From Stenotrophomonas humi (lineage in GTDB: Bacteria; Pseudomonadota; Gammaproteobacteria; Xanthomonadales; Xanthomonadaceae): DNA of 64,000 bases. The notes below the pieces were generated by a model, which was given only the letters and a program-made list of their open reading frames with translations, ran no database searches and had not been told where the DNA came from. A program made the position numbers and the translations under genes. Positions 25,684 to 43,346 of the stretch are shown in pieces (within the stretch, counting starts at the first letter, position 1; every line of letters starts with the position of its first letter). The stretch lies in contig NZ_LDJI01000012.1 of the NCBI RefSeq assembly GCF_001431415.1, forward strand, positions 62,001 to 126,000, written 5' to 3'.

Positions 25684-25810
25684 CTTTTCCCTTCTCCTGT
25701 CAGCGGGAGAAGGTGCCCCGAAGGGGCGGATGAGGGGAGCTTCTTGCGTTTGTTCGCTGGAAGCTCCCATCACCCCAACCCCTCTCCCGCAAGCGGGAGA
25801 GGGGCTTTGA
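25684..25810 (+). repeat. Composite palindromic repeat, best copy
   Basis: CCTTCTCCTGTCAGCGGGAG and AAGGTGCCCCGAAGGGGCGG ATGAGGGGAGC form the left half, a short spacer follows, and AAGCTCCCATCACCCCAACC plus CCTCTCCCGCAAGCGGGAGA with GGGGC forms the right half. Two hairpins flank a spacer, and the halves are partly complementary. It occupies most of the 198-bp thiE-hemL gap. Confidence 0.72.
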
Positions 25811-41936: not shown

Positions 41937-43346
41937 TCAGCCCTGCAACTGCGCCAGGAACCGGCGTGGCGCGCCATCGAAGCCGCCGTTGGACATGAAC
42001 ACCACATGGTCGCCATCGCGCACCACGCTGCCCAACTGCGCCAGCAAGGCATCCGTATCGGCCACCGCCTGTGCATCACCACGCACCGCGGCAATCACCT
42101 TGGCCGCATCCCACGGCAATTCCGGCCGTGCCAGGAACACCACTGCATTGGCGATATCCAGCGACGGCGCAAGCGCATCGGAATGCGCCCCCAGCCGCAT
42201 CGAATTGCTGCGCGGCTCCATCGCCACCACGATGCGTGCATCACCGACCTTTGCACGCAGACCTTCCAGCGTCGTGTGGATGGCCGTGGGGTGATGGGCG
42301 AAATCGTCGTAGATGGTCACGCCCTGCGCCTGGCCGATCACTTCCATGCGGCGCTTGACGCTGTGGAAGCGGGCCAAGGCCGGTGCCACGCTGGCCACAT
42401 CCACGCCCACCGCGTTTGCCGCGGCAAGTGCTGCCAGACCATTGAGCACGTTGTGCCGGCCCAGCAACGACCACTGCACCGTCGCAATCTCGGCCCCTCG
42501 ATGCAGCACGGCGAATGCACTGCCGTCCTGTTGAATCAGGCGCGCACTCCACTCCAGTGATGGATCGAAGCCGAACCGCTCCACCGGCGTCCAGCACCCC
42601 ATCGCCAACACTTCGGCCAGATGCCTGTCCTCGCCATTGACGATCAAGCGCCCACGGCCCGGCACCGTACGCACCAGATGGTGGAACTGGCGCTGGATCG
42701 CAGCCACGTCCTGAAAGATATCGGCGTGGTCGAATTCAAGATTGTTGAGGATCGCGACCAGCGGCCGGTAGTGAACGAACTTGCTGCGCTTGTCGAAGAA
42801 CGCGGTGTCGTATTCGTCGGCTTCGACAACAAAAAGCGGACGATCCGCAGGGGTCGACGCCTTGTTCCCTTCTCCCTCCGGCAGAAGCTTGCGCCCCAAC
42901 CTTGCGGAAACCCCGAAATCCTCCGCCACACCACCAATCAGGAAGCCCGGCTCACGCCCGGCGGCCTGCAGCAGGAACGCCAGGATCGTGGTGGTCGTGG
43001 TCTTGCCATGCGTACCGGCCACAGCCAGCGTGTCGCGGCCCGGCAGCACCTGCTCGGACAACCACTGCGCGCCGGAGATGTAGCGTCGGCCTTGGTCCAG
43101 CACCGCTTCCACGGCCGGGTTGCCGCGCGAGAGCGCATTGCCAATGACAATTTCGTCGCAGTCATCGCTGATATTGTCGGGCAGATACCCTTGCGACAAC
43201 GTAATGCCCAGGTTTTCCAGCTGCGTGGACATCGGCGGGTACACCGCCTGGTCGCTGCCTTCAACCTGATGACCGAGTTCGCGGGCCAAGGCGGCCACAC
43301 CGCCCATGAAAGTACCGGCAATGCCGAGAATATGGATCTTGCTCAT
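41937..43346 (-). CDS. mpl: UDP-N-acetylmuramate:L-alanyl-gamma-D-glutamyl-meso-diaminopimelate ligase
   Basis: A 469-residue Mur ligase that recycles cell-wall tripeptide by joining it to UDP-MurNAc. Marks: IHILGIAGTFMGGVA, the ATP loop AGTHGKTTTT, VEADEYDTAFFDKRSKFVHY, NNLEFDHADIF, and YDDFAHHPTAI. Compared from memory with E. coli Mpl (457 residues), it has about 16 extra residues between SARLG and PLFVVEADEYD. The DNA there resembles a dispersed palindromic repeat. Catalytic motifs on both sides are intact, so the enzyme is likely functional. Confidence 0.96.
   Translation of the reverse strand: MSKIHILGIAGTFMGGVAALARELGHQVEGSDQAVYPPMSTQLENLGITLSQGYLPDNISDDCDEIVIGNALSRGNPAVEAVLDQGRRYISGAQWLSEQVLPGRDTLAVAGTHGKTTTTTILAFLLQAAGREPGFLIGGVAEDFGVSARLGRKLLPEGEGNKASTPADRPLFVVEADEYDTAFFDKRSKFVHYRPLVAILNNLEFDHADIFQDVAAIQRQFHHLVRTVPGRGRLIVNGEDRHLAEVLAMGCWTPVERFGFDPSLEWSARLIQQDGSAFAVLHRGAEIATVQWSLLGRHNVLNGLAALAAANAVGVDVASVAPALARFHSVKRRMEVIGQAQGVTIYDDFAHHPTAIHTTLEGLRAKVGDARIVVAMEPRSNSMRLGAHSDALAPSLDIANAVVFLARPELPWDAAKVIAAVRGDAQAVADTDALLAQLGSVVRDGDHVVFMSNGGFDGAPRRFLAQLQG
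42840..42893 (-). repeat. Palindrome-like insert inside the mpl coding region
   Basis: The 54 bases encode 18 residues (RKLLPEGEGNKASTPADR) where E. coli Mpl has two. On the plus strand they contain CCCTTCTCCCTCCGGCAGAA, nearly the same as the TTCTCCCTCCGGGAGAA hairpin of the repeat at 20930, and the bases next to it read GCGCCCCAACC, like the repeat's CACCCCAACC end. In frame, no stop. Confidence 0.6.

What the first reader, a model, noticed from the sequence alone, without database searches (positions are those of the whole stretch)
42840..42893. Repeat-derived insertion in the coding sequence of mpl
Mpl here carries about 16 extra residues (RKLLPEGEGNKASTPADR in place of two) just before the VEADEYD motif. 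The corresponding DNA contains CCCTTCTCCCTCCGGCAGAA followed by GCGCCCCAACC, matching the dispersed repeat family. A palindromic repeat seems to have entered an essential-pathway enzyme without breaking the frame, as described for repeat insertions in a few other bacteria. The insertion lies beside the substrate/ATP site, in what should be a surface loop.
Basis: partly seen in the sequence, partly recalled or inferred. Interest (0 to 1): 0.6.

Follow-up and report, generated by a model that had tools for sequence, protein, structure and literature searches.

The report
Repeat DNA inside an Mpl enzyme loop
In this Stenotrophomonas genome the cell-wall recycling enzyme Mpl carries 16 extra amino acids that look like the decayed remains of a genome-wide DNA repeat that landed in its gene without breaking it, and related bacteria carry whole, decayed or different repeats at the same spot, so one enzyme loop seems to be a repeated landing place for repeat DNA.

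Summary
Confirmed and extended. Mpl (41937-43346, minus) has 25 residues between SAR and EADEYD; most relatives have 9. The extra codons (42840-42893) include a 21-nt remnant of a dispersed two-stem palindromic repeat (at least 77 matches at E<=1e-3 in this genome). Alone the remnant is weak (13.8 bits). The case rests on relatives: with a model built from non-mpl copies, 18 of 41 long-loop or related loci carry the repeat in this loop in the same orientation (29-73 bits), including other Stenotrophomonas, other family genera and Rhodanobacter. Long loops need 17 changes on a 153-protein tree. Elsewhere the loop holds the opposite-orientation unit or heptamer arrays. Mpl stays under purifying selection; the insert is modelled as coil. 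Mpl is a recycling enzyme. In-frame palindromic repeats in proteins are known (Rickettsia elements; GTAG/CGTC REPs, also in X. campestris and X. oryzae recB), so this is a new member of a known kind. Its special feature is capture of several repeat forms at one loop. HrpB, MetH and probably RecD of this genome carry such insertions too.

The parts
41937..43346 (-). mpl, UDP-N-acetylmuramate:L-alanyl-gamma-D-glutamyl-meso-diaminopimelate ligase, 469 aa
   Evidence: ORF; TIGR01081 614 bits; solved relatives 3hn7 and 3eag
42840..42893 (-). 18-codon segment RKLLPEGEGNKASTPADR, 16 residues net longer than the plain loop
   Evidence: Sequence; loop length 25 against 9 in 173 of 220 rows
42867..42887 (-). 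Remnant of the right-hand stem-loop of the dispersed palindromic repeat
   Evidence: 13.8 bits alone; corresponds in position to full copies in L090, L091 and L368
42894..42908 (-).
   Evidence: Same place in insert-free relatives
42825..42839 (-). P-L-F-V-V flank. Of 36 long-loop family rows 35 have a proline in the two residues before F (one ends ALFVV); of 97 plain rows 88 end REFVV and one (PDFVV) has a proline
42807..42824 (-). Conserved E-A-D-E-Y-D motif just after the loop
   Evidence: Invariant in a 93-row alignment
25689..25736 (-). Full-length copy of the same repeat family elsewhere in the window
   Evidence: G000:C4:87689-87736, 54.7 bits
20925..20967 (-). Second full-length copy in the window
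   Evidence: G000:C4:82925-82967, 39.7 bits; near match

Best explanation
The extra residues are the decayed remainder of a dispersed palindromic repeat (unit about 45 nt, two stem-loops) that entered mpl in frame, most likely in an ancestor of the window species and its three nearest sampled relatives, in a loop between SARLG and the EADEYD strand that tolerates length change. Shown: the insert; full copies of the repeat at the same position in relatives; the dispersed family in the same genome; patchy presence and variable length; purifying selection on the rest of the enzyme; other repeat forms at the same loop in other lineages. Inferred: the site was entered independently several times; copies then decay by substitution and deletion, and some were replaced by conversion or allele exchange; the insert is near-neutral. 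Unknown: what moves this repeat.
For: Model R1 was built from 5 own-genome copies outside mpl; one of them, L002, later proved to be the hrpB copy. It finds 112 matches at E<=1 in this genome, 77 at E<=1e-3 by my count, a lower bound since 150 of 2481 candidates were scored. Of 41 mpl loci given to it, 18 have a forward match in the loop: 49-73 bits in L097, L102, L095, L117, L096, L025, L090, L091, L139, L099, L098, L100, L094 (48.6) and 29-41 bits in L103, L026, L142, L154, L031. The match starts at the same gene offset in L091, L095-L100, L103, L117. In Stenotrophomonas 6 of 61 genomes have a long match and 55 do not. Four of the six, the window among them, form one branch (100/98) with four different inserts; the six as one clade are rejected (p-AU 7e-46). 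Over 153 rows the long-loop label, whatever its sequence, needs 17 changes, 14 forced. Other forms: L143 holds the opposite-orientation unit, one of 40 places in its genome; L115 and L159 hold heptamer arrays, L023 another. dN/dS 0.015-0.11 in ten long-loop pairs. In-frame repeats also in HrpB, MetH and RecD.
Against: The window remnant alone is not significant. Of the 41 loci, 22 have no convincing forward match and no opposite one; among g7 (17 of 17 rows long) many inserts are Ala/Gly-rich without a visible repeat. Long loop and proline flank go together (35 of 36, against 1 of 97), which repeated insertion into REF-type alleles would not predict; allele exchange, or insertion only into proline-type alleles, must be added. 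L143's unit is itself found by R1 on the other strand (34.5 bits), so it is a related unit, not an unrelated one. For the heptamer pattern in G208 the reversed control also gave 3 hits against 7. Target-site duplications were not looked for systematically and none was noticed; PF01797 gave 0 matches in the own genome and R1 found 1 weak match in 16 Y1 loci of relatives. The 3eag and 3hn7 loops are long without shown repeats.
Confidence: 0.83

Rival explanations
1. One ancient insertion at the base of the family, inherited vertically, with many later exact losses.
For: Same offset, orientation and frame in several genera; similar right flank (xASxLPDRPLF-like) in L089, L090, L091, L102, L117; the proline flank resembles the PFF of other Gammaproteobacteria.
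Against: Most losses would have to restore the same 9-residue loop ending REFVV (88 of 97 plain family rows). The heptamer arrays in L115, L159 and L023 and the opposite orientation in L143 do not fit one insertion. At least 14 forced changes.
Confidence: 0.2
2. Long-loop alleles spread between species by short-tract homologous recombination from few origins.
For: L091 and its plain sister L104 agree at 84-100% in the 45-nt blocks printed except 76 and 82% in the two blocks before the insertion; there L091 is 80 and 96% identical to the window gene, and 100% in the first block after it. The carriers are not one clade. L091 and L104 group near g51, another genus, in both trees.
Against: The tract is short and the difference is a few substitutions. 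No formal recombination test was run. It does not explain the different repeat forms.
Confidence: 0.4
3. The loop lengthened by slippage or drift, and the resemblance to repeats is chance from high G+C.
For: The window remnant alone scores 13.8 bits. The loop is long in 3eag and 3hn7. Many g7 inserts are Ala/Gly-rich.
Against: Full-length matches at 49-73 bits in 13 loci; an exact multi-copy unit in L143.
Confidence: 0.05
4. The insert is adaptive: it tunes Mpl activity, or its hairpin acts in the mRNA, and so is kept or renewed.
For: L090 and L368, in one clade, differ by two flipped base pairs in stem 1, which pairs in both; over 11 copies 8 cells changed on both sides, shuffled mean 2.6, 0 of 500 as high. 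Long in all 17 sampled g7 genomes.
Against: The number of pairs changed on both sides is not unusual (3; 61 of 500 shuffles as high). The window, L367 and L370 copies no longer show the two-stem unit (by eye). Paired changes are equally expected if another genomic copy replaced the mpl copy.
Confidence: 0.1

Closest known systems
Intragenic GTAG/CGTC REPs (PMC3733652: section 15 read whole, other passages)
   Same: Palindromic dispersed repeats entirely inside ORFs; S. maltophilia, X. campestris and X. oryzae among the hosts; DNA-repair, recBCD and RNA-helicase genes among targets; different REPs at about the same site of X. campestris and X. oryzae recB.
   Different: The repeat here lacks the GTAG/CGTC tag. 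mpl is not named in the section read, but the target list (Additional file 3) was not seen.
Rickettsia palindromic elements (described in passages of PMC10969869; original papers not read)
   Same: Palindromic elements inserted in frame in unrelated metabolic genes.
   Different: RPEs are given there as ~150 bp elements of Rickettsia; this unit is ~45 nt. No sequence comparison was run.
RAYT-associated REPs of Stenotrophomonas and Xanthomonas (PMC2817692: passages with Table 1)
   Same: High-copy palindromes in the same bacteria, also in inverted pairs.
   Different: The listed REPs have GT(A/G)G-type heads; this repeat does not. The own genome has no PF01797 match and 16 Y1 loci of six relatives are not flanked by it, bar one weak match.
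GGGAATC-type heptamer repeats of Xanthomonas (PMC4692102: passages)
   Same: Heptamers (GGGANTN)n, also as inverted pairs, some intragenic; the L023 and L115 inserts resemble them.
   Different: Not the form found in the window. L159 units (GGGAGAC on the other strand) deviate from GGGANTN.
Natural loop variation in Mpl (3eag Neisseria, 3hn7 Psychrobacter)
   Same: Extra residues at the same position before the EADEYD strand.
   Different: Repeat origin was not tested there.

Membership tests
In-frame intragenic palindromic repeat (general kind) | Sequence belongs to a dispersed palindromic family | tested here: met
   For full copies in relatives, with a model from window-genome copies outside mpl, and L143 in its own genome. 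For the window remnant alone: inconclusive (13.8 bits).
In-frame intragenic palindromic repeat (general kind) | Reading frame kept, and homologues without the insert exist | tested here: met
GTAG/CGTC-tagged REP | GTAG or CGTC tetranucleotide at one end of the palindrome | tested here: not met
   Copies read CCCTCATCCG...GAGAAGG(G)
RAYT-associated REP | Cognate Y1 transposase gene flanked by the repeat | tested here: not met
   In the 8 genomes searched: 0 PF01797 matches in the own genome and in G269; 16 loci in six others, 1 weak repeat match. Other genomes not tested.
Rickettsia palindromic element | Sequence homology to an RPE family | not tested
   RPE sequences not fetched; the original paper asked for is not held
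BIME-like paired repeat | Two palindromic units in opposite orientation with a spacer | tested here: inconclusive
   Seen by eye around several own-genome copies and in the HrpB, MetH and RecD inserts; the window mpl copy is part of one unit only
Mpl (TIGR01081) | Score above the curated cut-off | tested here: met
   614.1 against 388.7 bits

The most novel reading that the evidence does not exclude
The loop before the EADEYD strand of Mpl is a true hotspot: palindromic units in both orientations and G-rich heptamer arrays of several kinds have landed at one loop in Lysobacterales, and intact copies are renewed there by conversion or reinsertion from genomic copies, giving a natural record of repeat mobility read out in one enzyme.
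Probability: 0.3. Interest if true: 0.6.

Novelty: new member of a known kind. Interest (0 to 1): 0.45.

Why it matters
It indicates that dispersed repeats without a GTAG tag also rewrite proteins in this family, and gives one locus with empty, fresh, decayed, nested and different occupants in a conserved enzyme. That makes it a convenient place to measure how often such repeats move, decay and are tolerated, and it warns annotators that the extra residues need not be a functional domain.

Tried and rejected
Local folding of the window remnant: no better than shuffles. Mpl in plasmids: 71 records, all below 60% identity. Y1 transposase as the mover: not supported. Pieces of the repeat as words in papers: 0 papers with 2 of 4 terms, which says only that those letters are not in the held texts. 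Searches for mpl with insertion and repeat (8 of 1,748 listed) and for intragenic repeats in Xanthomonas (10 of 54 listed, 12 of 16 listed) listed no title on an mpl insert; apart from the papers named above these were seen as listings only (of PMC2267715 I saw passages).

Survey of the own genome: 90 repeat loci gave 56 candidate ORFs running through the repeat; 55 were scanned with Pfam, one (L250) had a wrong coordinate and was left out. HrpB, MetH and RecD (two of the loci) matched families on both sides of the repeat. L334 is PanD with a marginal repeat match (E 0.57), taken as chance. L234, L249 and L254 matched on one side only; the rest had no match. So most candidates are not evidence of genes.

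Rows dropped: one search parsed 195 of the 220 loci L009-L228; 5 (L144-L148) were the MurC-like matches and 20 others failed my motif (18 named ones, and L172 and L174). Family rows are not a random sample, since lengthened matches were fetched first, and one search listed places for only part of its 297 genomes. The tree used 153 of 195 rows (3 short rows and 39 named rows, nearly all from outside the order, left out). dN/dS used the left arm and at most 450 nt of the right arm, ungapped. The pair count used 11 gap-free copies; L099, L100, L103, L117, L026, L031, L142 and L154 were left out.

Full report
What was claimed.

Observation. The 469-aa mpl ORF lies at 41937-43346, minus strand, 614 bits to TIGR01081. 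The 18 codons RKLLPEGEGNKASTPADR are exactly 42840-42893. The SAR-to-EADEYD stretch is 25 residues here and 9 in 173 of 220 parsed rows. The 21-nt CCCTTCTCCCTCCGGCAGAAG is at 42867-42887.

Organism. One of the window's genus-mates, G267, has a contig of the same length (148,444) as the S. pavanii LMG 25348 contig that holds L015, and their Mpl are identical; I therefore call genus code g1 Stenotrophomonas. Other genus codes are unnamed.

The repeat family. Copies outside mpl share a two-stem unit, in several cases beside an opposite unit CCCCTCTCCC-loop-GGGAGAGGGG; the latter has 51 exact-pattern places in this genome. A covariance model from five own-genome copies (one of them turned out to be the hrpB copy) gives 112 matches at E<=1, 77 at E<=1e-3 by my count (only 150 of 2481 candidates were scored). 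The window holds two full copies besides the mpl remnant. The GTAG head of the known Stenotrophomonas and Xanthomonas REPs (PMC2817692, passages with its table) is missing.

Relatives at the same loop. The model, which had seen no mpl sequence, finds the repeat in the loop, coding orientation, in 18 of 41 mpl loci given to it: Stenotrophomonas L090, L091; g7 L094-L098, L100, L103; g51 L102; g29 L117; g17 L099, L154; g46 L139; g26 L142; Rhodanobacter L025, L026, L031. Most full copies read like PSSGAARHLLPEGEG. L368, another Stenotrophomonas, was read by eye. Five of six reading frames of the unit are open, so this frame is not forced by stops. The window copy scores 13.8 bits, having kept only the second stem; 22 of the 41 loci, the window's among them, show neither this nor the opposite unit convincingly.

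Other occupants. L143 holds CCCCTCTCCCATCGGGAGAGGGGTGGGGGTGAGGG, one of 40 places of that pattern in its genome; R1 finds it on the other strand at 34.5 bits, so it is a related unit in the opposite orientation. L115 and L159 hold heptamer arrays: their genomes have 7 and 5 overlapping hits of the pattern, 3 and 2 of them in mpl, and for G208 the reversed control gave 3. L023 holds CCCCAAT arrays; 9 hits in its genome, 2 of them by position in mpl. L142 shows the unit interrupted by further palindromic sequence (by eye). Heptamers of GGGANTN type are described for Xanthomonas (PMC4692102, passages).

History. In a 153-row protein tree without the loop the long-loop label needs 17 changes, 14 forced by well-supported branches; 0 of 500 shuffles are as low, so it is clustered but patchy. 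Within Stenotrophomonas 6 of 61 genomes have long matches. Four of them (window, G315, G029, G337) form one branch (100/98) with four different inserts; all six together are rejected as a clade (p-AU 7e-46, 43 rows). L090 and L368, both in that branch, differ by two flipped base pairs in stem 1, which pairs in both. Over 11 gap-free copies 8 cells are changed on both sides against a shuffled mean of 2.6, but the number of such pairs, 3, is reached by 61 of 500 shuffles. This fits replacement by another genomic copy, or reinsertion, without proving it. L091 resembles the window gene more than its own sister in the blocks next to the insertion, a hint of short-tract exchange. Long-loop alleles have a proline flank in 35 of 36 family rows, plain ones in 1 of 97; L020, a named row, has a plain loop with PLF. 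This linkage is the main point that simple repeated insertion does not explain.

Protein. dN/dS in ten pairs of long-loop genes is 0.015-0.11; two plain pairs gave 0.09 and 0.21. The model of the window protein (mean pLDDT 89.4) has the insert as coil with a 3-residue turn, at about pLDDT 76, between strands 148-149 and 171-176. Nearest folds are MurC and Mpl structures; 3eag Z 40.0, rmsd 2.3, 315 aligned. 3eag and 3hn7 carry extra residues in the same loop. Exposure and distance to the ATP site were not measured.

Other genes. In the same genome a full copy lies inside hrpB, encoding PSSGAARHLLPQGEG, and MetH and RecD carry paired units in frame. E. coli HrpB and MetH structures have 8 and 11 residues where the window genome has 45 and 54 between the aligned parts. 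For RecD the part before the insert aligns only at an insignificant score, so that case rests on Pfam matches on both sides. In Stenotrophomonas 3 of 61 genomes (window, G029, G337) matched HrpB in one piece, and the same 3 MetH; several others are fragmentary. In G315 the two HrpB pieces overlap by 9 nt while leaving out 33 query residues, an empty or shorter site.

Judgement. The mechanism best supported is passive: repeat units enter tolerant loops in frame, survive because the enzyme still works, and decay. What moves this repeat is unknown. Intragenic REPs, including same-site ones in X. campestris and X. oryzae recB, are in print (PMC3733652, section 15 read; its target list not seen), as are Rickettsia elements (PMC10969869, passages). 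What I did not find in the texts seen is the gene, this untagged family, and several repeat forms at one loop.

Noticed in passing
L229 (G000:C14:103378-103422): ATP-dependent helicase HrpB has an in-frame paired repeat, SPSPSGGG...PSSGAARHLLPQGEG, before EVLPLHG; one-piece match in 3 of 61 Stenotrophomonas genomes.
   Followed up: yes
L289 (G000:C20:11987-12099): Methionine synthase MetH activation domain carries an in-frame paired repeat lacking in E. coli MetH; one-piece match in 3 of 61 Stenotrophomonas genomes.
   Followed up: yes
L298 and L332 (G000:C40:48123-48229): RecD appears to carry an in-frame paired repeat just before the helicase core; relatives were not searched. A low-complexity stretch near the end of the read frame (SEASPFSGSEGGSRGTT) may be another insert.
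   Followed up: partly
L142 (G068), mpl loop: The palindromic unit in mpl is itself interrupted by further sequence holding palindromes, giving a 66-residue stretch.
   Followed up: no
g7 genomes (L107, L123, L124, L134, L135, L150, L153), mpl loop: Ala/Gly-rich inserts without a recognisable repeat; decayed repeats or another origin.
   Followed up: no
L091 and L104 (G221, G233): The mpl genes of these two Stenotrophomonas group near another genus (g51) rather than with most of their genus in both trees, a possible gene transfer.
   Followed up: no
L244 (own genome C14:63579): Tandem array of a repeat-derived unit (LLPRAGEGxQxDPxLSQLTxS read in one frame).
   Followed up: no
L086, L048, L077, mpl loop: Short loop extensions in Mpl of other proteobacteria without visible repeat.
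   Followed up: no
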